Of a DNA stretch of 64,000 nucleotides, positions 1-64,000 are shown piece by piece. The position numbers were made by a program, and so were the translations under genes. Below the pieces are notes generated by a model, which was not told the origin of the DNA, did no database searches, and saw nothing but the letters and a program-made list of their open reading frames with translations. Position 1 is the first letter of the stretch, and the number at the start of each line of letters is the position of its first letter. This DNA is from Ischnura elegans. Lineage: Eukaryota > Arthropoda > Insecta > Odonata > Coenagrionidae. The stretch lies in the NCBI RefSeq assembly GCF_921293095.1, contig NC_060259.1, positions 48,775,812 through 48,839,811 on the forward strand, read 5' to 3'.

Positions 1-600
1 GCGGAAAATTCATATCCACCAAATACATTTAATTTGGCTTGCTGCGTTGACGCTAACCACGAAAGACGGTGGATTTTCATTAGATTCTGACTAACGGTAA
101 TGCATGTCGGTAATGAAAATGAACTCCTCACCTTAGTTAATATCGATTCAACTCGTAGGTATGTGCGGTACCTATGTATTTTAGTGTAATGGAATAAAAC
201 ATACACTGATGTTGTTGAAATTTCGTTTAAGATGAAACCTTTTTCACTGAGTAATGAGTACTATAAATATTACGACAATATCAGTGAAATGAAAATAAGT
301 ATGTAATTCTCTATAAAAATAGTTGCACGCAATGGAACAGTTTAAAATCGTTAAAATGACGGATTGAACTTAGTTTAAGAGTTATTTACGTTAAGGGTAA
401 TTACATTCATATAAATTAAATGTGGACTACTAATTTTGCATAGCATAATATTCAGACAAATTGAAGAGGTTTTATAATTGGAAATGAATTATTTAATGCT
501 GTCGAAAAAATAAAAAAATAATAATGATCCTGCAGTTTCTTCACCATTGACTAATTGATGATCTCTGGGTTTCTTTTTAAATTTTACTAGGTATTTTTAC
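1..600. other. No gene; diverged repeat shared with 61 kb
   Basis: Parts of 200-480 (TGAACTTAGTTTAAGAG, TAATATTCAGACAAATTGAA) align loosely with 61020-61335. No coding sequence recognised. Confidence 0.35.
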
Positions 601-639
601 ATCTTTTTGGACAATATCGTTGTAAATATGTTTCGTATC

Positions 640-2960
640 AGTATTTTTCATAACACCTTTTCGTTATTTTTTATTTCAACTATTTTGGGCTTATTTTTAG
701 CAAAATGTGGCGGTATAGTTTTTTGGTCCTCTGTGCTCCTCGCAATATTCCCATGCAGAATCCTTGAGAAGAGTATATCTATCATATCTGAGACTTGGCT
801 TAATCCTGCCGTTAGTGACTGTGAGTTATCCTTTTCCAATTCCCATTCAGTGTACCGTCGGGATCGACTATCCAGAGGTGGTGGTGTGCTCCTTGCCATC
901 AATTCACAGTTCCCCTCAAAACGCCGCACAGACCTCGAGACAGAGTGCGAAATAGTGTGGTGTGAAGTTCATCTACCCACGAACAAACGTGGAAAATTAG
1001 AGAAAGTTTTTGTTGGTTGTTTTTATCGTCCCCTCGCGAGTGATATTAGTGTGCTTGAAAACTGTCTCGACTCTGTATTAAAGGCTATTGATCTCGGCCC
1101 AATTATCTTGGTGGGTGATTTTAATTTGTCTATTCGCTGGGAGTCCTCAATGTCCGGCCATTCTCTTAACGCAGACGATAACTTTTTCTTGGAACATTTT
1201 ATTCATGCTCTTCGCCTACCGCAACATAACCTCCACAACACCCGTGACCTGGAAACGTTGGACCTACTCCTTTCTACCGTCACCCCTGAGGCTATTACCT
1301 CCGGGCGAAATATTTTCGACTCGGACCACGAGTCCCTGGATGCGACTTTCCTTTTTAAAAGTTCTCGGAAGCTCCGCAGAGTTCAACCCACAACCCCCGC
1401 CCAGTCTGGGCAAAGGCTTGCTGGGAGGACATAAATCACTGTCTCGACTTAATACCCTGGGGTGTTGTTTCCTCTTTGTCCCCTGAAGAAGCAGTGGACT
1501 TCCTCTACGCAGTCCTTGAGAGCGTCACTAAAGACTTTGTCCCGATCGCCAGCCCCAAGACGAAATAATTCCCATTCTGGTTTAAAACTGAAACAATCCA
1601 CATTTTAAAAAAACAAGAACCGTGCCTGGTATCTTTTAAAGTCCTTTCCCAATACTCACACTCGCCGTTCCTTTTCTGACCTACGCCGTTATTCAAAAAC
1701 CCTGATCCGTCGAGATAATGAAGAATATGCCCAAACCCACTGCTCATCCGTTGCATCCAATCCCAAGAAATTCTGGTCCTTTGTCAATCGTCGTCGTAAC
1801 CGGCCTCGCATTCCGAATTCCATTTCATACAATGACCTCAGCGCAGTAGATTCAGAGAGATCTAATCTATTTCTTAGATTCTTTTCTGAATGCCTTAAAC
1901 CCCCTTTTAGTTACCCTCTAACCCATGATCATGCACTTACTCCGAACACCAATCACTGCCTATCCCAAATTCAAACCGACCCTCGGGAAGTCTACTCTTA
2001 TCTTTGCAAGATTTCCCCCCATCGTTACCCTGGTCCTGACGGTCTCAGCCCTATTCTCATAAGAAACTGTGCTTCCTCCCTCGCACTACCCTTATCCATA
2101 ATATTTAACCGTTTTTTTTTCTCTCGGTGTTTTTCCACCGCAATTTAAATTTGCTAACATCACTCCAATTCACAAATCTGGGTCGAAAAGTAATGTCTCC
2201 AATTACCGTCCCATTTCTCTACTTCCAATTCTCTCATCAGTTTGCGAGAGAATTATTCTAAACAGGCTCTATTATTCCACGTCCCCTTTTCTATCCTCCT
2301 TCCAACACGGCTTTCTCCCTGGTAGATCATGCTTAACTAATTTGTCAGTTTTCCAGCACCATGCTGTTGCCTCAATATCTAAGAAAGCCCAACTTGATGC
2401 AGTATTTATTGACTTCTCAAAGGCTTTTGATTCCCTCAACCATAGTCTCCTCCTTCATAAAATAAGTAATAGGTTTAATATCCATGGTAATTTTTTCAGC
2501 CTCTTATCTAGCTTTATTAGTGACAGATACCAGCGCGTCATTCTTTCTGGCATCTCATCTAGTTGGTCTCCTGTAACATCAGGAGTTCCCCAAGGCAGTG
2601 TTCTATGACCATATCTATTTAATTTATACATTGACGACTTAGCCTCCCTTATTCCCGCCTTGCAAGCCCACATGCTGTTTTACGCTGGCGACTGCAAAGT
2701 TTTCAAAACCATCCACACTCCCGCTGACTGCCACGAACTGCAAAACGCTTTAAATACCATTTCACGCTGGTGTCTTACCTGGGAACTAAAGCTCAATGAG
2801 CAAAAGTGCAATACCATGTCTATCAACCTAAAAAAATTCCCCCTTAACTTTAATTACACTTTAAACTCAATACCCGTGAATCGCAAGTCGTCAGTGAAGG
2901 ATCTTGGCGTATTAATTGATACAAAACTAAATTTCTCCGAGCACATAGAAAGTTAAGTCT
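640..2960 (+). pseudogene. LINE (non-LTR retrotransposon) relic: endonuclease plus reverse transcriptase
   Basis: Fragments of one long ORF2 in several frames. The N-part (about 780-1430) is an apurinic-type endonuclease: SETWL, RRDRLSRGGGV, FYRPL, GDFN and a closing SDHES. The reverse transcriptase follows: PGPDG near 2035, FANITPIHKSG and NYRPISLL (2150-2225), QHGFLPGRSC (2300-2335), IDFSKAFD (2408-2430), SGVPQGSVL (2580-2605). The palm motif that should be YADD reads YAGD (2682-2693), so a catalytic Asp is lost; a TGA stop lies right after QGSVL (2606-2608), and frameshifts occur near 1435-1700, 2130 and 2630. The 5' end is missing. It resembles Jockey/CR1-group elements but the clade is not certain. 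Not functional. Confidence 0.88.
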
Positions 2961-4467: not shown

Positions 4468-4645
4468 CACATCTACATAATACCCTGCGAGCCACTTCAA
4501 GGGCGCTTGGCAGGGGATGGTGCATGCAGCATGCAACTAGACTCCCACATGCGCACCACACGGTCCAAAAAACGTCACGCATACTAATAAATTATACTAA
4601 CAAATGCTGTAAGAATAATAATAAAAATCAGAAACATGCATTAAG
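4468..4645 (-). repeat. GTAGATG-tailed dispersed repeat (LINE 3' end)
   Basis: On the minus strand the sequence runs to GTGGCTCGCAGGGTATTATGTAGATG, the tail shared by many copies in this window. It ends next to the MITE/piggyBac junction at 4672. Confidence 0.6.
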
Positions 4646-4671
4646 TCACACTAAAGTTGGTACGCTACACC

Positions 4672-4756
4672 ATAGGCGGATCTAGGGGGCACGGGAGAAC
4701 GTACCTCCCCCCGACTCTTAATACCTATTCAAGATTTTTAATACGGTCCGATAAAG
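4672..4756 (+). repeat. Truncated GGCGGATCTAGG-type MITE fused to piggyBac
   Basis: Starts ATAGGCGGATCTAGGGGG and ends in TTTAATACGGTCC; both halves match the MITE copies at 22517-22668 and 56905-57178. It supplies the first 30 or so codons of the open frame that runs on into the piggyBac transposase, so that frame's ATG at 4657 is not the transposase start. Confidence 0.65.
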
Positions 4757-6187
4757 CTGATTTATTAAATAATGAGTTATTTTTTGATGATGAAATAATT
4801 TCAATTATAGTGACTGAGACAAACCGCTACGCAGCACAGTTTCTTGCTCGTGAGAAAGAGAAAATTACGAAGCAAAAAAAATCGCGCTTCCAAAAGTGGG
4901 TCCCCACAACTCTGGGGGAAATAAGGGTGTATTTAGGTTTACTGATGTTGATGGGAATAATTCAGAAACCAAGCCTCAGAATGTATTTTAGCAGAAAGCA
5001 TTTATTAGAGACTCCATTTTTTCCCAACGTAATGAGTGAGCAAAGATTTTCATTGCTCACCAAATTTCTCCATTTTGTAGATAATACCGATGAGGAATTT
5101 GTAAAAAAGGATCCAAGACTGTATAAAATTTACCAATTAGTAAATATTTGAAAAATAAGTTCCAAAAAGTGTATATACCCGGTAAGGAAATCAGTGTAGA
5201 TGAGTCTTTGTTGTTGTGGAAAGGTAGACTGTCGTGGAAACAGTATATTCCCATGAAAGCTTCCCGGTTTGGGATAAAATTGTTTGAACTTTGTGACTCC
5301 GCAGGGTATTTATGGAATTTTATTATTTACTGTGGCTCAGGGACAAAATTGGGCTGTGAAATCACAAAGGACACAAATCTTTTTTCAACTAAAGTTGTTC
5401 TAAGTTTGTGTGAGAAACTATTAGACTCTGGTAGATGTGTTTATATGGACAATTTTTACAGTAGTCCCGATCTTTTCAGAGGAAAAAAGATGCTGTTGGA
5501 ACCGTGAAAATCACGCGTAAAGGTATGCCAGTAAACCTCAAACAGAAACTAAAGATAGGAGAAGTTGTTAGTGCAAAGTGTGGGAAATTGGTTGCTTTGA
5601 AGTGGAAGGATAAACGCGATGTTGCATTGCTGACTACAAAGCATTCAGACCAAATGCAACCCGTAAGTCGAAAGGGCGGGCTAGAATGTGTAAACAAACC
5701 TATGTGTGTAACAGAGTATAATACATATATGGGCGGTGTAGATTTAAAAGATCAACTTTTAGAATCGTTCCTGCTGGAAAGAAAATGGACAAAAGTGTGG
5801 TACAAGAAATTATTCAATCACTTAGTTAATACGGCTGTGTTAAACGCGTACATTTTATACCGTAAGGCTGGTAATAACAAAGATCACCTAGCATTCAGAA
5901 TGAGCTTAGTGAACAAAATAATTGCTAAGTATCACGGACAGAATTTAGAACAGCGCAAAGGACGGCCCTCTGATATCGATACGGAATGTACGCGATTGAC
6001 CGGGCAGCATTTTGTTCAACAAAACCCGAAAACTGAGACATTTAAGGTTGGAAGAAGAAAGTGTGTTGTGTGCACAAAAAACGGAAAGAGAAAAGAGACA
6101 AGATATAGATGCAAAAACTGCCCAGGAACACCCTCACTATGCTTAGAACCCTGTTTTGAGCAGTATCACACACAGGTCAACTATTAA
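4757..6187 (+). pseudogene. piggyBac-family transposase relic (PGBD4-like)
   Basis: DDE-type cut-and-paste transposase that acts at TTAA sites. Three segments: 4757-5151 (N-terminal DDE_Tnp_1_7 region: FFDDEII, WVPTT..EIRVYLGLLMLMGI), 5150-5507 (EISVDESLLLWKGR, then VYMDNFYSSPDLF) and 5504-6187 (TRKGMP, YNTYMGGVDLKDQL). The three aspartates of the catalytic triad are all present (VDES, MDNFY, GVDLKD). The C-terminus has the cysteine-rich zinc-binding domain, with CVVC, CKNC and CLEPC. It is broken by a 1-nt shift near 5130 and another in an A-run near 5484, where several residues are also missing. The true N-terminus was replaced by a MITE. No convincing TIR or TTAA duplication was found around it. 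Few stops suggest it is not very old. Confidence 0.9.
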
Positions 6188-34100: not shown

Positions 34101-37100
34101 AATCGTTCAACGGGGCAATTGCCTATCACCTTAAATATTTAATAAATTTAACCAGCCATCAGAGCACCAGCGACCGACAGACCATGAATAATAACAGAAT
34201 ATGGCATCAACACATGCCGAATCCCCGTTCAGTTTGAGCGAGTGATTTAATTTAAATAGCCTGGAAATTGAAGTTACATGTGTAGGCTCAAGTTGAATGA
34301 ATCGGCACACCATTGAGCTAAAAAATTGATAGCTCTTGTCTGAACAATTAAACAGCAGAACACGAGATGCCTATCTGAATAGAACAATTTTAAAATTGAG
34401 GTGTCGTGCTGATTGCTAATAAGAGTTGAATAAAATCTCTTTCGTCTCCGGTCGACATTCCTCTCCCTTTCATCCGAATATATCTAAAATATACACCGTG
34501 AAGTTTATAATTAAACATAGAATGAAGTTTTTTTTCAAAAGATTATTCAAAATAGACGCGGCATAAAATTCGAGGAAGAGTCTATAAACAATATCCAATG
34601 CTCAACTTTTTCTTCGTACTCAACTTTAGAACAGCAGATGGGTCTTTTTCGGGTGCGTTCGTAATGTTGGACTATCCAAGACAGGTTACATTTATTACTC
34701 ACCTTCAAAATACCCGCACCAGCGAGCGCACCCACGCACTGCGCCAGGATGTAAAGAATCGCACGGAGAAGAGTCACTTGGCCGGAGACAAGCAGCCCAA
34801 CAGTGACAGCGGGGTTTATATGACCACCGCTTACGTGCCCCGTCACCTGAAAATGTAAAAAGCAAAGAGGATTAATTCCTTAGTCTAAAATAATCAATTG
34901 CCAAGCCGGCGATGTTCATGTTACACGGTACCATGTGAAAATGTTCTCTGATGAAAAAGTCATTTCCCTGTATTTTCATATGGAAAATGTCCTTTTTTGT
35001 TTCTTTTTAGGTTTTTCATCTCTGTAAATTGTGTTTTTTTATGTACCAGTTAAACATTGAACACACCTTGTAAGACCCCTTACCGCCACCACCTTCATGA
35101 TAAAAGTTTTACATTCTTTCGTTGAAAGATTATTTACACCAAAGCCGTTAATAGTGAGCTGTCTGAGATACCATATAGGTGTCTCGAATAGGAATACAAT
35201 GTATACAGGACGCAAAAAATTGTGAAATGGATGTTAGTTCACGCGTCTGCCACGGCTAGTAGGCAGCCGCTTTCCGCGGAAAGAACTAGTCCTGGACTAC
35301 ACAATATGGAAAGCGTTGTTATGCTAATAACAAAGCGCTGACATTGTTCCTTTTTATAGCAAACGTCGAGTCTTGAAACTAGCAACAAATTAAAGAATAT
35401 AAGATAAATCATCCAACTTACAATTAGACTAGAAGCCTTTCCGCAGTTAGCGATTCATACAGGGAAGAAACGAAAATCGGAATTTACGACTAAAAGAGTA
35501 TTCTGAAAGTTGACTACAAAATAAACATACGGAATATGGCTTTAGCACATTATTACCAAACACCAATTTATATTGCTCTATTTGGAAGTATTTCACAAAC
35601 AAGCGTATTCATTGTTCCTAAACCTTTTCCTGAGATATTATCCTGCATTCTTCTACGCGTATCATCACACGAGAAATCAAAAATACGAATGTGCACTGGA
35701 TTATAATTTACTTCGGTATGATATTTTTTTCCAATCGCTATTAACATTCCTATAAGCAAATATGTCAATAATGCTTAATATATTCCCGTTATCAGCGAGT
35801 AAGCTACATCCTCATGTTCATCGAAAAGTTCGAATGTCTTAATAATTATCCTAAGTAAAGTCTCGATGATTAAAAAAACTATCTGAAGCATTAATTACAA
35901 GACTAGTTTGCCTATTTCTTAACATTTAAAGACACATTTAGTATATCTTTATCTTTTCCTCTTTCATTAAGAGGTCAAACTATGAATTTCCCCTTTTTTT
36001 GTCCCTTTTTTCTGCTGGAATCATTCACCCCGCAACACGGCTGAACGCGAGCATGGATGGCAACCGCGACGGAAACGACAATATTAAAATTGGCGTATGT
36101 ATTGGACAAGACTATGTGAAAAAAGACTAGTATCATGCTAGGATTGGTCCGAAAATTTTATTTGTACCATATGTGCAGCATAAGTTTACCAAACGACTCT
36201 GATGTTCCTCTCTTCCTCGCGCGATGGGTTACTTGTTTGGCTGTGGAGGGGGGGGGGGGGGCAGGGTTCACGGGGACTTCCTACATTTGAAATAGTGTTT
36301 AGGGCTCTTGACGGAGGTTTAAGTAGCCAAGTTGCAGCAATTGCACAACCCGATCAAATCAAAGCGATCCTCGATTGACAAGGAACGCGAAAGCAATACG
36401 CGAAGGTCGACTTCGGAGAATAACGGAAACGTCTGCGCAGGGTATGTGGACCATCTTTTAAAAGTGGCTGCACTAGTTAATATCTTGCATACATGAACGC
36501 GGGAATGAACGCCAAAATGCACCGTTTAACCACCCAACTCGTGCGAATGAATGCACAGAAAATGAACCTCTTCTAATTTGATTCACGCATTCGTTATATT
36601 CCGTTCCGGTCAACCAAAATCATTCGTGCAATCTGACATCAACCCGGACGTGTTTCCGGGCAGACTAACTCAGTACCTGTTACTTATATATCGCGTAACC
36701 GGACCTCAAGGAACATTGTGCATTTCTAACGTTGAAACAACGATACTTCTAATCTAAAATCGAAAGGATGGATTCATTTTCCCGTGGAAGAACCCTAATA
36801 TTTCTGTATGAAAGCAAAGCCTCTCATTAATGCTAGATGCGATAAACTATGAGGTGTTGATTGGATACCCGAATGGAGATCTGAATCCTTTTAGCAAACC
36901 CGTTCAATTCAAGTTTTATTAAAACTCTTAAAGGCAAAGTTCACTCCTCTACATCAAATCTAATGAGCAGGCATTTGCGTACGAATATATCTTTAAGTTT
37001 CAAAATATTAATTAAAAAACGCATAATAGGGATAGTCTTATCCTCCAGAAGAATGGGACTAACTCGAAGGAATATTATAACCGGTCTGAAAATCCCATGT

Positions 37101-37920: not shown

Positions 37921-38355
37921 CACAGATAGACCAGAAATCGGGAGAGAGCTAAGGACACGACCATGCTACCATATACATTTATTCATTACTACGCAAGCCA
38001 TCTTAATAGGCGTGTAACGGTGTTTATTAGGATACCAGCCGTTTACAAGTAAAAAGGATATTCTCAAACGAAATAACACTCAGCATTTAGTAAAGCCCTA
38101 CACTTGTACTAAAATGCACATGAAATTAACATCCAAAGGGCAGCAGGTTTCTTCAACAGTACAAGGACACTTTGAATACTGTTGGAACTGCGTATGAAAA
38201 TTAAATATGAACGTTTGAGCTTTTGCAGAATCGAGGTAAATGAAAACGGTATTTAGAACATACTACACCTCGAATTATACAAGACACACTTCGATATACA
38301 AGACTTCTAATAAGAGATTATGAAGGTCATCTTTCATAAAAATGAGAAAACGTCG

Positions 38356-39147
38356 CACAGTGGGCTAGAATCGAAAAAAGCTGGCCAAAACCTCAAAATC
38401 GATTTTTTTGAGCTAGGAAATTGAAACTTCGCATACACATTCTCAAATAAATTGTGCATAACTTCCCAGATTATTTTGGTCCTGTGTTTACACTTTAACA
38501 ATATATGTGAGGTCAAAGTTGAGCAAATTTAGCGAAAAACGACCACCCTCGATTTTTTCTGAAAATTGCCGACTTTATCCTCGTGCAGTGGTTTTATAAA
38601 TAGATTTATCGACAAAACTGTTATACCATCTTAATTGACACTTCTTATTCTTTCATTTGAAGGGTTTTTAAAGATTTTGTTTCATCAATAATCATAGATA
38701 CATAACAAAATGGCGGAGCCTGTTTTCAACCCATTTTTTCACATAAACGTAGAAAAAAAGTAGACATTGTCACCGGCTTACACTAAGTAACTTATATCAT
38801 GTCGTTCTTTGAAGCTTCTATATTGTGAATCTAAAGTCAAACCTTGCACCAATTTGCAACCCCGAATTTTAAATAGTTTTTTCGAACGCACGGACGACAC
38901 CGGTTCTGGCCGGCGGCGGCGGAGAGTACGGCGACGCGGCAAGCGGGTGGATGCAATATGGTCTCATTCACTTTTATGTGTGGATAACAGATATATTAGT
39001 GACAGAAAATAATCACCAGAAAGTAAAATTTATAAATATTGCTACGAATGACTCTCATTATGCAATCGCTGGGCACTGCAAGAGGTGCACTGAAAGGTTT
39101 CCTTCTTTGAGTGCATTCCATGGGGAATGGACTTAAATCGCGTGCTT
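38356..39147 (+). repeat. Left 792-bp terminal inverted repeat of the Transib-like element
   Basis: Begins CACAGTG, followed after 21 bases by GCCAAAACC, which matches the V(D)J nonamer ACAAAAACC at 7 of 9 positions. Contains a GC-rich patch (about 38890-38945) rich in CGG. The open frames inside both arms are mirror copies of each other and show no family match. Confidence 0.85.
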
Positions 39148-40868
39148 TACAAACTAATAAACTTTTTAACAATAACAGATAATATATTCCTTAAACGTGA
39201 TGGAAAATGGCTCAATACAGTACTTGATTTTGCCGAAATTTGCCAAATCAAGTACTGTCTTGGTGCTTGAAGAGTTCATTATTCTTATCCAGTAAGGTTA
39301 TTTAATTTATATTCTTGATTTAAAGCAATTAATAACTATTCCTTATGCAGCACAATTTACATGTTGCTCTAGTTTAGCCAGTGCAGATGGACGTCAATTC
39401 ATGTTTTTAGGGTTGTATGAAGAGAACGACTAGGAGGAAAACGAATGCAAAAGGAAGATACAGTGACCATCCTCGGAGGCAAGAACTCTTGCCAAGTGGA
39501 TAAAATGCAACCCCGAGTATTATGTTATGTCAGATTAAGAGGCCCTCTCACTAAGTAATTGTGTCCATGCAGCTCACAAAATTTCGGTGCAAGGGTCTTC
39601 GAAAATCTGAAATGCCAGGGATATAATATTAACCCCAGCGATGAGAGAGTGACGCGAGTATATGATTTCATTTACCCGAGTGAAATTATTGTAGCAGAGG
39701 TTATATAAGAAGTTTCCAAAAATGGTTCTGCATCTTACTGCGACTCGAATCTTAACGTACATTTCCACAGTTCCAAGTTTCGCGTCGCATATAAAGTGCA
39801 CTTAAATTTGCAAACACGGCTTTGACAGCAGTTAGGACATGCGCAATATAATCACACGTGGGAACGAGGGCCTATGTCTCATGAATTATTGCTCGTGAGC
39901 ACCTTTGTGCCTTCTTGTTTAGGTAAAAAATGCTGTTCCTTAGGCCAAGCATGAAACAGGCACAAGTATTCAAAAGTCATCACAATTATTCTAGATTTCC
40001 TCTCCAAATAATTTAATTTTCTCTCTCTCACACTGACGCTTTAAATACAATTATGGTATGCCACCAACCGTACATAAGGTCTTCATTCAAGGAGCTGACA
40101 TTGCAAGAGAGTCCATTCTTAATTGCGACAACTGACAGGGGAAGCGATATAAGGACGTGAGAAAGTTCCGTGAACGGTTGACTAGAAAAATGGCACGAGT
40201 GGCCACAAATAGGGATTTATTCCGAAGACAACTACTAATATCATAACTGATAATGACAAAAATTACGCCAATTAAACTGGAGGAAACACACAGCTTGCCG
40301 AAAAATGTAATGGATCTGTTTTTGAAAAAGGAAAACAATGCTTTAGCTCAGACAGTGAAAGTGATAAAAACTCGTCAGATAGTGAATGAAAAACAGTAAC
40401 CTTTTATTGCTGACAGTGATAATTGCAGTATGTTAGTTGGGAAAAGTGTAAATTTTGCTGCTTTTGTTTATGTTATGTTTGTATGGTAAAATATTTCTGA
40501 AAAATAACCATTTTGTCAGCAGCGCAGTTTAATAAGAATAATGACGTTGATATATAGGTAAGAGATTTAAATCAATACTTTAAATTGAGTATAAGGCATA
40601 CATTAAAATAAACTGTATTTCTTAGGAAGAATACATCATTTGATGTGAGTAATATGCCTTCCGAAACTTTTAAAGCTAACAGGAGTTCAAACTTCAAACC
40701 AAAAACAAGTTCGAAGGGCTCGGCACTACAACAATACTGTAAAACGACCGTGGTCAGAAGGCCTTTAAATATGTATGGAGGGTTAGGAAGTGGAGGCTAT
40801 GGGTCATCGAAGGCTCTTGCCTAGAAATAGAGCTTGTTTGTTAATAAAAGAGTCCGTTTCCCCACTTT

Positions 40869-41660
40869 AAGCACGCGATTTAAGTCCATTCCCCATGGAA
40901 TGCACTCAAAGAAGGAAACCTTTCAGTGCACCTCTTGCAGTGCCCAGCGATTGCATAATGAGAGTCATTCGTAGCAATATTTATAAATTTTACTTTCTGG
41001 TGATTATTTTCTGTCACTAATATATCTGTTATCCACACATAAAAGTGAATGAGACCATATTGCATCCACCCGCTTGCCGCGTCGCCGTACTCTCCGCCGC
41101 CGCCGGCCAGAACCGGTGTCGTCCGTGCGTTCGAAAAAACTATTTAAAATTCGGGGTTGCAAATTGGTGCAAGGTTTGACTTTAGATTCACAATATAGAA
41201 GCTTCAAAGAACGACATGATATAAGTTACTTAGTGTAAGCCGGTGACAATGTCTACTTTTTTTCTACGTTTATGTGAAAAAATGGGTTGAAAACAGGCTC
41301 CGCCATTTTGTTATGTATCTATGATTATTGATTAAACAAAATCTTTAAAAACCCTTCAAATGAAAGAATAAGAAGTGTCAATTAAGATGGTATAACAGTT
41401 TTGTCGATAAATCTATTTATAAAACCACTGCACGAGGATAAAGTCGGCAATTTTCAGAAAAAATCGAGGGTGGTCGTTTTTCGCTAAATTTGCTCAACTT
41501 TGACCTCACATATATTGTTAAAGTGTAAACACAGGACCAAAATAATCTGGGAAGTTATGCACAATTTATTTGAGAATGTGTATGCGAAGTTTCAATTTCC
41601 TAGCTCAAAAAAATCGATTTTGAGGTTTTGGCCAGCTTTTTTCGATTCTAGCCCACTGTG
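40869..41660 (-). repeat. Right 792-bp terminal inverted repeat of the Transib-like element
   Basis: Reverse complement of the left arm over its full length with no net length change; a landmark (CGGTTCTGGC) sits exactly 545 bases from each terminus. Near-identity implies recent insertion or gene conversion between arms. Confidence 0.85.
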
Positions 41661-41917
41661 CGTCGTTACATATGAGCACCATATTACAGCGTCATGATGA
41701 CGAAACCAATGACGACTACCCAAGATTTAATTTAAACAGTTTCGAGTGAATAAGAGTGCATACTTCAGCTTAGACTCCTCAATAGTTATTAATCATAATC
41801 GATGATGAAATAGACTATCATGAAAAGATCCACATAAACATTGATTTAACGCACTACCGAGTTACAAGATTTTCAATACTGATAGCTGAAAACGCTTGAT
41901 AGTTATTCCACACTAAC

Positions 41918-57778: not shown

Positions 57779-59217
57779 ATGGAAGGAGGTGAAATTGAAG
57801 GATTTCCAGATGGATTTTCATCCGAGGATGAAAATTTATTGATTCCGGAGGTTTGTAGTGTGAAAAGTTTAATTATTTGTTGAAATGTACTTTGCGTATT
57901 ACAACCCAGTTAACCAAATGTTACTTATGTTTCAGTTTATTAAAGGTCTGTCAAAGAAGGCTTCGGAAAGAAAACGCCGGATGGATGAGGTGACCCGAAC
58001 GGTAAAGAGGCGGCTACGCTTGAGGAGGTTGGCTATTCAATTTTTGAGTGGTCGAGGAAGAGAGCGACGGAGGTGGCTACAGCCGGAGTTGCACTTCCTC
58101 AATTTGGAGGAAGGGTGTTGGGAGAAGTGGTGCCCTTCTACACGGAGGAAAGGTTCCGAAAAAATTCAGAGTGGGGCGCGAGACATTTTTCACCCTGGTG
58201 GGTGTTTTGTCTGCCTCTATAGAGAGGCAGAACACTGTGATGAGGAATGCTATTAAGGTGGAGAAGAGGGTGGCAATAGCCATATTTTGCCTTAAGGGCT
58301 ATTCAGATTTCTGGGCTGTTGGGAACATGTTCCGGGTTTGTGCGAGCACTGTACCCTCAATTCTGTACGAGGTTTGTGACGGTATTAACAAAGAGGTGTT
58401 CCCTTTCATAGTGCAATTCCCCAGGGACAATGCTCGTAAAGAGGAATTTGCCAGGGGGTTTTGGAGTCTCTGGCAATTCCCCAATACTTTTGGTGCTCTT
58501 GACGGTACCCACATTCGCATCATTAAGCCGTCTGAAGATCCAATGGACTATTGGAACTACAAGGGGTATCACTCAATGGTGTTGATGGCCCTGGTAGACC
58601 ACGAGTATAAGTTCCTTTATACTAATATAGGCAGACAAGGAAGAGTAAACGATGCCACTGTTTATAATTTTAGTGGCCTGAAAGTGGAGCTCGAGCGTAG
58701 AGAGTTCGACTCAAAACTGCATGTAATTGGGGATGGAGGTTTCCCTTGGTCTCCCTCTCTCCTGAGGCCATATGTACAAACTGGCAACATGAATGCAATT
58801 CATTCGCATTTTAAAACACGTTTAAGTAGGGCCAGGTTAGTGGTGGAGGACGCATTTGGGAGGCTAAAGGGAAGGTGGCGTGTGCTGTTAAAGAGGTTGG
58901 ATCTCGGAGTTAGTAATGTTCAGCGTGTGGTGAAGGCTTGTGTGGCACTTCATAATATTTGTGAACAGCAGAAGGAGTACTTTTATCCGGAGTGGGTACC
59001 TGCTCTGAATGAAGTTGCCCTTAACTTCGAGCAGCCTAATGTCGCTGTGCGAGAGGACAGCAATGTGGAGGGAGCTCGAAAAAGGGACAGATTGGCCCAC
59101 CACTTGTTTCATGACAACATTTTATTCAATACATGTAATTCAAAAAGCAGCAGGAAGGGGTCCCAGATGGGAACCCAATGGAACTGCCGGTGTTCTAATG
59201 AACGCTTTATTAATTAA
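57779..59217 (+). pseudogene. PIF/Harbinger transposase (HARBI1-like, DDE_Tnp_4), N-terminus frameshifted
   Basis: Nuclease that moves Harbinger elements together with a Myb-like partner. Exon 1 57779-57850 (MEGGEIEGFPDGF...), an 85-bp intron (GTTTGT...TTTCAG), exon 2 from 57936. The catalytic region 58170-59112 is open without a stop: RVGRETFFTLVGVLS, FWAVGNMF, FPNTFGALDGTH, NYKGYHSM, GRVNDATVY, GDGGFPWSP, VVEDAFGRLKGRWR, ACVALHNIC. Catalytic residues: Asp at 58501, Asp at 58732, Glu at 58846. Between 57990 and 58165 the homologous sequence switches frame about three times, the last in an A-run at 58157-58162, so a full protein cannot be made as written; sequencing error would be an alternative cause. 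It faces the Myb-like gene at 61.5-63.2 kb, the usual two-gene plan. Confidence 0.88.
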
Positions 59218-61495: not shown

Positions 61496-63243
61496 TTAAA
61501 ACGCAAAATTCCGTTTAAATTTATGTGCAAAAGAATACAAGGTCCAATAACACATAATTACCGCCTGCTGCTGACCCACAGCAGAAGCACCTGGCTCCAT
61601 CCTTGCCTGTTCCAGCTGGGCCTGGACCAAGGCGGTCTTAGCCCGCAGATAATCCTGCAGGCACCTCGCAGTTTCTCTCTCCCTCTCTTCATCAATCCTC
61701 CTCCTCTTCTGCTCCTCCCGCATCACTTCCAACATCTCCTTATCATGCTTGATCAGTTCTTTCATGTATGAATGTGCCTGAGAAGGCGACCTCCTCTCAC
61801 TTGAACTAAAATAAAAAAATGGAACTTCATTTGCAATGATATACAACCAAATGGTATACAACCAAGTGTTCCAACCAAAGTTTCCCCTAAAACTACTCAG
61901 GATTATTTGGAAATTCCAAGCAACATTTCCTCCATCACTCACTGCAATGAATATTAGAAGGAGCTATCACCATAAACATAACTCTAATAAACAGCCAGTA
62001 TCTTATTATTAATCTATATTGTTTTAAGTTGATAAAGAGATAGCAATTGCAAAAGTAATTATAATGACATAACCCAACACCAGGACCACTGACTTGAATT
62101 TTCACCAGTTAAACGGCAGTCGTAATTAATGTCAAGAAACCAATAAACATGGAAAGACCGCACGTATGCACCGTATTACACTTACATCATCGCACTTCCG
62201 CTGCCGCTCCTCTCACCGCCGCTGTCTGCATCTCCATCACCGTCAGGGCTCCGATGACTCGAGGAGGCGCCAGGCGTTTGCTCTATACGAAATTAATGCT
62301 TGCGGTGAATATGGGAACAACAATGGCACGGATACGATGATGGTAATTTTATTCTCAACACAATTTTGCAGGGGTGTAAGTAGTAGAAGATACACAAAAA
62401 TATTTACGTACCAGTTTGGATGGAGTCATCGGCCCTGGCTTCACAAAAAACAGGCCTTGCCCCAAAAGCCTCCATCATCTCCCCAAAATGCGCCCATTGG
62501 GAAGGGGAAGACCCTATGGAAAGAAATTAGGTAACTAATAGGTAACCTAGTCGAAACTATTAGCAACGGAGCGCCATTCTAACTTCATGACCACAAGCTT
62601 CACTTCAGTCATCACATCCACATGCGTACAAATTATAACTTATGGGGACTAAGCATTACTAAAAAGGTACACTTATTCAATTGTGTTATGCACTACGCGT
62701 TCATTGATGAAAACTCCTCTTAAATCGCATATGGTGGGGTTATTAAAGAGAGCACAAAATGCTATTTTAATAACCTCATGGGTGGAACCACGTGATCATA
62801 AGAAACATTTTAAAACTTATTAATTGATACGTTCAAAATTAGGCCTAACACTTGAAAATGCAAACCAACATGTAAAAAAACTCATTGATGACGAAAGTGA
62901 GGTGCCCGACACCACCATTGTTAATATATGGTAAACCACATGTATGCGTCTATCACTATCTTACTATTCTCGCAAATTACTAAATCAAGGAATTCTTACC
63001 TGATCTCGTCTTCATCTTCTCCTCCATAAATTTGGCTTTCAGGTTCTTCATTTTTGTCCGAACCTCCAGCCCAGTCCTCTGATATCCGTTTAAAGTTAGG
63101 GTGCTCGCAAGTTCCTCCCACACCTTATTGTGCTTTTCCAGCCCCTCAAACTTTCGATCAATTAAAAACATATTATATGTTCTCATGAGCGCATTCGTTT
63201 CCTCGAGCCCCCAATTCCTTGCTCTGCAAACTTCATTTGCCAT
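61496..63243 (-). CDS. Harbinger-associated Myb/SANT-like DNA-binding protein, four exons
   Basis: Partner protein that in PIF/Harbinger systems binds the transposon ends and helps the transposase into the nucleus. Exons 63243-63000, 62513-62412, 62282-62186 and 61805-61496 have GT-AG borders and matching phases (1, 1, 2), giving 250 residues with no stop. The start ATG has a strong context (ACCATGG). Residues 10-80 are a Myb/SANT-like trihelix: NWGLEETNALMRTY, KVWEELASTL, RTGLEVRTKMKNLKAKF. Then W-x-HFGEMMEAFGARP, a Ser/Gly/Asp-rich linker (about 117-148) and a long charged coiled coil (KHDKEMLEVMREEQKRRRIDEE). Undamaged, unlike its transposase. Could alternatively be a domesticated host gene, but the neighbour argues for a transposon gene. 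Confidence 0.82.
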
Positions 63244-63319
63244 GGTAACTGCAGCAAATTTCTCGACCACGCCGAACGAAGTCTCGCGCCAAATGAGACA
63301 GAGTGATATGCCGGGTCTA

Positions 63320-64000
63320 CACTAGTAACTTAAGTGACTACTTAAGTTGGCTCTGTATTTAAGTTGGTAGTGTAGGTGTCACCAGCTTCATTTAAGTACA
63401 CCTCCACTTAAGTCATCTTAGAACCCAACTTAAATTGCGTAGGCAACTGTTTCCGCACGGTTGAAGCTCTTCATGTGTTGTAAATGGCACATAAATACCC
63501 ATCTCGCATCATCCCGTTGATTATGTTCTAAGTTGTGCTGTATTGTATGATGTGGTTATTGAGCGTTCTATTACGTTAGTTAATTTCTAGTGTTGGGGAT
63601 ATTAATTCGACGAATTTATTTTGTAGTGTTTCTCATCTTATTGTTGGTTTTATTTCCGTGAAAACTAATTGCTATGCCTGTTGCTCACGGTGAAACTCGA
63701 TTTATAAAACTTAGAAACGTTTTAAGGAATTTTAAGACTGACAATGAGGCGACGGCAGAGGATCCGGTAAAACAGTTTATTTTCCATGGTGTCATAATCG
63801 AAAATAACGTAAACGAATGCACTCAGTAACTTCCCACACACTGTTATTGAAAATATTGCATAGGGCTTTAATGTTAGTCCTAGGGATGCCGAGGGAGATA
63901 AGATGTGGCGATTTCATTGGACGTGGGAGGAATTAATGGTTGAAATTTAACATCAATGGTTTTAATAAAGCAGTGGAATTTGACTAGCAATAAGTGTTTT
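63320..64000. other. Upstream of the Myb-like gene; AACTTAAGT repeats
   Basis: Between 63325 and 63440 the motif ACTTAAGT or AACTTAA(A/G)T occurs at least seven times in both orientations, next to GGGTCTACACTAGTAAC. Such clustered short palindromes could be transposase or Myb binding sites near an element end. No matching inverted terminus was found on the left side, so the element border is not fixed. The remainder shows no gene. Confidence 0.4.

What the first reader, a model, noticed from the sequence alone, without database searches (positions are those of the whole stretch)
38356..41660. Transib-like element with RSS-type ends and 792-bp inverted repeats
Seen: ends CACAGTG, arms of exactly 792 bp that are nearly identical, and CGTCG on both sides. 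Known: Transib elements have CAC-starting ends, 5-bp GC-rich target duplications, and are the proposed source of RAG1 and V(D)J signals; CACAGTG is the exact V(D)J heptamer. After 21 bases comes GCCAAAACC, 7 of 9 to the nonamer. Transib ends are normally short, so repeats of nearly 800 bp would be an unusual architecture.
Basis: partly seen in the sequence, partly recalled or inferred. Interest (0 to 1): 0.82.

Follow-up and report, generated by a model that had tools for sequence, protein, structure and literature searches.

The report
Long-armed relative of antibody-gene-cutting transposons
This is a copy, with a decayed gene, of a jumping-gene family (Transib, relatives of the enzyme that cuts and joins our antibody genes) present roughly a thousand times in this genome; it is unusual because its mirror-image ends are about 800 bases long instead of about 40 and seem to copy-correct each other.

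Summary
Window 38356-41660 is a 3,305-bp element with CACAGTG ends, 792-bp inverted arms (1 mismatch) and CGTCG on both sides. It is a non-autonomous Transib: 28 of 29 two-ended copies have identical 5-bp flanks, consensus CGNCG; joined flanks of a sister copy match uninterrupted empty sites; its interior holds a decayed RAG1-like transposase C-terminus (E 8e-12); Transib transposases of the same genome match the solved Transib transposase 6pqn (E down to 5e-117). The 37-base end, up to 3 mismatches, occurs 2,113 times (pattern read backwards: 0). The architecture is unusual: ten transposase-related elements here have 35-47-bp terminal repeats, whereas 26 of 28 measured copies of this family have 790-907-bp arms. 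Arms evolve together: 47 arm-to-arm mismatches where about 251 are predicted; private variants are 76 mirrored, 37 one-arm, with fewer mirrored near arm edges. Arm-to-arm gene conversion fits best. No autonomous partner with the same ends was found. The nonamer claim is weak (22% of shuffles do as well). New variant of a known kind.

The parts
38351..38355 (.). left target-site duplication CGTCG
38356..39147 (+). left arm, 792-bp terminal inverted repeat
   Evidence: 1 mismatch to the right arm
38356..38362 (+). terminal heptamer CACAGTG, the same as the V(D)J consensus heptamer (that consensus is from the finding and recall)
38384..38392 (+). GCCAAAACC block (end positions 29-37); overlaps the G29 and A33-A35 positions shared by most of the 21 Transib ends aligned
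   Evidence: resemblance to the V(D)J nonamer not above chance
39148..40868 (.). interior, 1721 bp, without a long open frame; this copy lacks 11 bp present in the consensus of 18 copies
40040..40321 (+). decayed C-terminal part of a Transib (RAG1-core-like) transposase; in the family consensus it runs in two frames and holds stops
   Evidence: tblastn E 7.8e-12 with the L031 transposase and 1.6e-8 with an L033 frame; family consensus E 5e-13 with L029
40869..41660 (-). right arm, 792-bp terminal inverted repeat
41661..41665 (.). right target-site duplication CGTCG

Best explanation
The element is a non-autonomous Transib-superfamily DNA transposon with foldback-like architecture. Shown: its family inserted with 5-bp duplications at CGNCG; its interior carries a decayed Transib transposase piece; of the order of a thousand copies exist; the two long arms stay nearly identical within a copy while copies diverge. 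Inferred: a RAG1-like Transib transposase supplied in trans binds the terminal 35-40 bp, cuts at CAC and pastes the element into a CGNCG target; and the long arms are maintained, and sometimes lengthened, by repeated gene conversion between the two arms of one element.
For: 28 of 29 two-ended copies have perfect 5-bp duplications, CGTCG 13, the rest CGNCG-like. Empty site: the joined flanks of copy L025 match at least 40 places without interruption, and the two of them that I fetched have CTCTG once where L025 has CTCCG on both sides. Transposase remnant. Transib transposases in the same genome; matches to 6pqn at E 5.2e-60, 7e-117 and 4.7e-117, and weaker ones to RAG1 or RAG1L (that 6pqn is the Helicoverpa zea Transib is recalled). 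Of ten elements with both ends read, 8 have perfect 5-bp duplications. 2,113 termini, control 0. Concerted arms in 26 copies: 47 mismatches seen, about 251 predicted; private variants 76 mirrored, 37 one-arm. Edge effect: Fisher p 9e-5, 3e-3, 2e-4 and 7e-4 for edges of 60, 80, 100 and 130 bp. Arm length differs between groups of copies: 790-794, 820-833, 907 bp.
Against: No autonomous element with these ends was found in the loci whose ends were read, so the trans-acting transposase is not identified. Copy L065 has unlike flanks, CGATG and AGACT; L018 has one end only. L035 and L050, two of the ten transposase-related elements, lack a perfect duplication. The Pfam RAG1 model found nothing over its cut-off in the genome; the L043 frame passes it (27.9 bits against 25), L057 has no Pfam match. 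'Private' means absent from 25 other copies of about a thousand, so the timing of homogenisation is open. The figure of 251 rests on an automatic alignment with indels, and misaligned interior bases would inflate it. In L015, L019 and L026 the arms differ by 1, 2 and 3 where 0 are predicted.
Confidence: 0.93

Rival explanations
1. The arms are identical only because the family is young: a founder with a perfect inverted duplication spread recently, and no process corrects the arms.
For: 16 of 18 close copies are under 1% from their consensus in substitutions; some variants are shared by groups of copies in mirrored form.
Against: Within a copy the arms differ less than the interior predicts (47 against about 251); variants seen in one copy only are more often in both arms than in one (76 to 37); eight older copies, 3.8-5.7% from the consensus in their longest matches, have 0-6 arm-to-arm mismatches (L064 counts 6 there and 8), and the roughly 9%-diverged L058 has 47 mirrored and 6 one-arm differences in 658 columns.
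Confidence: 0.06
2. Homogenisation is a by-product of each transposition: the excised linear element folds back on itself and mismatches between the arms are repaired before reinsertion.
For: Explains mirrored copy-specific variants equally well.
Against: No direct evidence for a folded intermediate; the deficit of mirrored variants at arm edges is expected for conversion tracts, though fraying ends could mimic it.
Confidence: 0.25
3. A MULE, hAT or P/Galileo-type foldback element whose ends resemble RSS heptamers by chance.
For: Long terminal inverted repeats are typical of foldback-like elements such as Galileo (passages of PMC3573991).
Against: 5-bp CGNCG duplications, Transib transposase remnant, end sequence shared with transposase-bearing Transibs.
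Confidence: 0.01
4. Assembly artefact across inverted arms.
For: Near-perfect inverted arms are a classic place for misassembly (general knowledge).
Against: 28 copies between matching 5-bp duplications, with copy-specific variants in both arms.
Confidence: 0.01

Closest known systems
Transib superfamily transposons (Drosophila transib1-4; Hztransib of Helicoverpa zea)
   Same: CAC-starting ends, 5-bp duplications, RAG1-core-like transposase (here as a remnant and in related elements of the same genome).
   Different: Terminal repeats are 40-45 bp in transib1-4 (table passage of PMC10299278) and 35-47 bp in ten elements of this genome; here 792 bp, and 907 bp in one copy. Hztransib is said to have 'long TIRs', without a number in the passages that I saw (PMC1852546). 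Anopheles gambiae Transibs are said to have imperfect TIRs (passage of PMC3442997).
Transib MITEs of Helicoverpa armigera and H. zea
   Same: Non-autonomous Transib derivatives with 5-bp duplications.
   Different: 75-564 bp long with 13-57-bp terminal repeats, as I read the columns of the table passage (PMC9033116; header row not fully seen); the present family is about 3.3 kb with arms near 800 bp.
Galileo (P superfamily, Drosophila)
   Same: Foldback-like architecture; terminal repeats up to about 1.2 kb, longest in copies without the transposase frame; length varies by recruitment of internal sequence; authors discuss recombination and conversion tracts (passages of PMC3573991; the phrase 'gene conversion' does not occur there).
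   Different: Other superfamily: P-type transposase, 7-bp flanking sequences (same passages).
RAGL / ProtoRAG transposons and V(D)J recombination signals
   Same: CAC-starting ends, 5-bp duplications, RAG1-related recombinase (passages of PMC7204232 and PMC8355894).
   Different: No nonamer above chance at this element's ends; a RAG2-like gene was not looked for.

Membership tests
Transib superfamily | 5-bp target-site duplication | tested here: met
   28 of 29 two-ended copies; empty sites
Transib superfamily | GC-rich CGNCG-like target (feature named in the finding and recalled) | tested here: met
   C1 28/28, G2 23/28, C4 25/28, G5 28/28
Transib superfamily | terminal repeats beginning CAC with a heptamer-like end | tested here: met
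   CACAGTG at both ends; alignment of 21 ends
Transib superfamily | RAG1-core-like transposase in the element or its relatives | tested here: met
   remnant inside the element; transposases of related elements match 6pqn
Transib superfamily | autonomous element with the same ends | tested here: inconclusive
   not found in the loci read; the genome could not be read in full
V(D)J recombination signal (12/23 RSS) | nonamer at a 12- or 23-bp spacer | tested here: not met
   best match 7 of 9 at spacer 21; 1089 of 5000 shuffles reach 7
Galileo / P superfamily foldback | 7-8-bp duplications and P-type transposase | tested here: not met
   5-bp duplications and Transib remnant
RAGL transposon (RAG1L + RAG2L) | RAG2-like gene beside the RAG1-like gene | not tested
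   no RAG2 search was run; the longest stop-to-stop frame touching the window element is 87 aa

The most novel reading that the evidence does not exclude
A foldback lineage has arisen inside the Transib/RAG superfamily: arms of about 800-900 bp, about twenty times the usual length, are homogenised within each copy and have grown inward, possibly with arm repair coupled to each round of transposition, and the long-armed form amplified to about a thousand copies in a genome that also holds many Transib lineages with large open transposase frames.
Probability: 0.5. Interest if true: 0.6.

Novelty: new variant of a known kind. Interest (0 to 1): 0.5.

Why it matters
Transibs are the accepted relatives of the RAG1 recombinase, and one paper states that autonomous copies are typically one or a few per genome (passage of PMC4411706). 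A genome with numerous Transib lineages, a family of about a thousand copies with the CACAGTG heptamer, and a target palindrome that can be measured offers natural end and target variants for testing how RAG-like enzymes choose ends and targets. The concerted arms are a natural case for measuring gene conversion between inverted repeats of one element.

Tried and rejected
Pfam scan of three frames of the element: two matches, both below the curated cut-off. The 5,252-bp copy L024 looked like a possible autonomous form; its extra DNA holds a DDE_1 (pogo-like) frame that begins at the junction, so I read it as a nested insertion with a deletion (inference). The 4,543-bp copy L058 is an older copy with a nested insertion whose end is 81% alike over 78 bp to this family's end. 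The genome-wide Pfam RAG1 search gave 12 hits, all below the cut-off, but led to real transposases. The DNA search with the interior (40 of 847 candidates scored) returned only stretches 95-100% alike plus short inverted matches, so a more distant parent could not be seen that way. I read 3' flanks of twelve further transposase loci: none held CACAGTGGGCTAG. Host species not identified. Literature: eight searches. One search ('Transib' with 'long terminal inverted repeats') gave 0 papers; ('Transib', 'MITE', 'long TIRs') gave 7, of which I opened passages of one (PMC1852546). No passage that I opened (eight papers) describes a Transib with arms of this length, but most listed papers were not opened, subscription papers are mostly not held, and the 2005 paper that linked Transib to RAG1 is not held.

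Full report
Observation. The element lies at 38356-41660 with 792-bp arms that differ at one position, CACAGTG at both ends and CGTCG on both sides. The longest stop-to-stop frame touching it is 87 aa.

Copies. The window lies in a 1.72-Gb, 110-contig assembly; the arm search scored 40 of 2563 candidates, and the 40 places (several are the two arms of one copy) matched at 98-100%. The 37-base terminus with up to 3 mismatches occurs 1063 times forward and 1050 times reverse; read backwards it occurs 0 times. Only the first places, all without mismatch, on contigs C1 and C2 are listed there; I paired them by hand: 26 pairs, 24 of them 3,234-3,441 bp long and two longer (5,252 bp, L024; 4,543 bp, L058). 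'About a thousand copies' is half the number of termini, so it is an estimate. I fetched 20 copies, L058 and eight more. With the window that is 30, of which L018 has one end only. Of the other 29, 28 have identical 5-bp flanks: CGTCG 13, CGACG 3, CAGCG 3, CGCTG 2, CGCCG 2, CGGCG 2, CATCG 1, CGATG 1, CTCCG 1; the miss is L065. Beyond the duplication the target is palindromic: with both orientations counted, A precedes it in 39 of 56 and T follows in 39 of 56, and two bases beyond them lies a CG pair (G 33 and C 26 of 56 on the left, mirrored on the right). The sites are not all independent: L025 and L028 lie in copies of one repeat, and L061 and L063 have near-identical flanks (by eye).

Empty site. 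The flanks of L025 joined with one copy of the duplication match 40 scored places (of 2022 candidates), each spanning the junction. The two fetched show the five bases once where L025 has them on both sides.

Transib identity. The genome search with the Pfam RAG1 family gave 12 hits below the cut-off, some in open transposase frames. The L033 frame and the L031 and L057 proteins match 6pqn at E 5.2e-60, 7e-117 and 4.7e-117; L031 also matches vertebrate RAG1 at E 3e-6 and weaker, and L057 a RAG1L chain at E 1.7e-6. Protein searches with L033, L057 and L031 list 118, 76 and 88 matching stretches (101 of 2492, 62 of 5520 and 79 of 5341 candidates scored; one gene can give several stretches), including open frames of more than 600 and up to 727 aa. 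Ten transposase-related elements with both ends in view, about six lineages by eye, have 35-47-bp terminal repeats; eight of ten have perfect 5-bp duplications. Among 21 ends that I aligned, CACAGTG is exact in 21, G8 in 20, G29 in 20, A33, A34 and A35 in 17, 19 and 20; they were picked with patterns that allowed one mismatch in or next to the heptamer, so its constancy is partly by choice.

The element's own transposase. tblastn of the L031 transposase hits element positions 1685-1966, window 40040-40321, at E 7.8e-12, and of an L033 frame positions 1697-1969 at E 1.6e-8. In the family consensus the match runs in two frames and holds stops. From recall, the catalytic glutamate of RAG1 falls in the block that carries one of these stops. 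The remnant is nearest to the L029/L031 lineage among those compared (40% and 37% identity over 70 aa); the 3' end of that lineage (L040, L071) differs from this element's end, so it is a cousin, not the shown parent.

Arms. In 18 close copies the arms within a copy differ by 1.4 on average, against 7.7-8.0 between copies. Of 65 arm variants, 31 occur in one copy only but in both of its arms, and 18 in one copy and one arm. In the outer and inner 60 bp of the arms 2 of 12 variants are mirrored, in the rest 42 of 53 (Fisher p 9e-5; edges of 80, 100 and 130 bp give p 3e-3, 2e-4 and 7e-4). With eight older copies added (26 in all), private interior changes predict about 251 arm-to-arm mismatches if the arms were independent; 47 are seen, and private variants are 76 mirrored to 37 one-arm. 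That prediction rests on an automatic alignment and misaligned bases would raise it; the mirrored counts do not depend on it. L015, L019 and L026 go the other way, with 1, 2 and 3 mismatches where 0 are predicted. L058, not in that count, has 47 mirrored and 6 one-arm differences in 658 columns. Arm lengths by BLAST are 790-794 bp in the window copy, 17 close copies and L064, 820-833 in six older copies and 907 in L061; the truncated or rearranged L028 and L024 have 356 and 576-581. Growth inward and correction between arms are what conversion between inverted repeats would give; Galileo shows comparable length dynamics (passages of PMC3573991).

Reading. The family is a non-autonomous Transib with foldback architecture. 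Insertion with 5-bp duplication and the decay of its transposase are shown; mobilisation by a Transib transposase in trans, and conversion as the homogenising process, are inferred.

Noticed in passing
host genome G000; e.g. L043-L047, L055, L057: A rich set of Transib lineages with large open transposase frames, at odds with the remark in PMC4411706 that autonomous Transibs are usually present in one or a few copies.
   Followed up: partly
L024:1122-3496: A pogo-like DDE_1 transposase frame nested in one copy of the family, with part of the host element missing.
   Followed up: partly
L058:3009-3949: A nested insertion whose end is 81% alike over 78 bp to this family's end, perhaps a related Transib inserted into a Transib.
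   Followed up: partly
L025 flanks; L079; L080: A repeated palindromic element of about 230 bp whose middle carries a GTTA-CTCYG-TAAC target; L025 and, by its flanks, L028 are inserted there.
   Followed up: partly
window 562-2953: Broken non-LTR retrotransposon; endonuclease (562-1431) and reverse transcriptase (2102-2605) domains found by Pfam, the rest by eye.
   Followed up: no
window 4645-6184: piggyBac-like transposase (DDE_Tnp_1_7, zf-Tnp_2) in several frames.
   Followed up: no
window 58048-59214 and 62983-63321: Harbinger-type DDE_Tnp_4 nuclease and, about 4 kb on, a Myb/SANT-like domain on the other strand.
   Followed up: no
window 34550-34879: An aquaporin (MIP) exon on the minus strand, the only host-gene-like match among the eight window frames scanned.
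   Followed up: no
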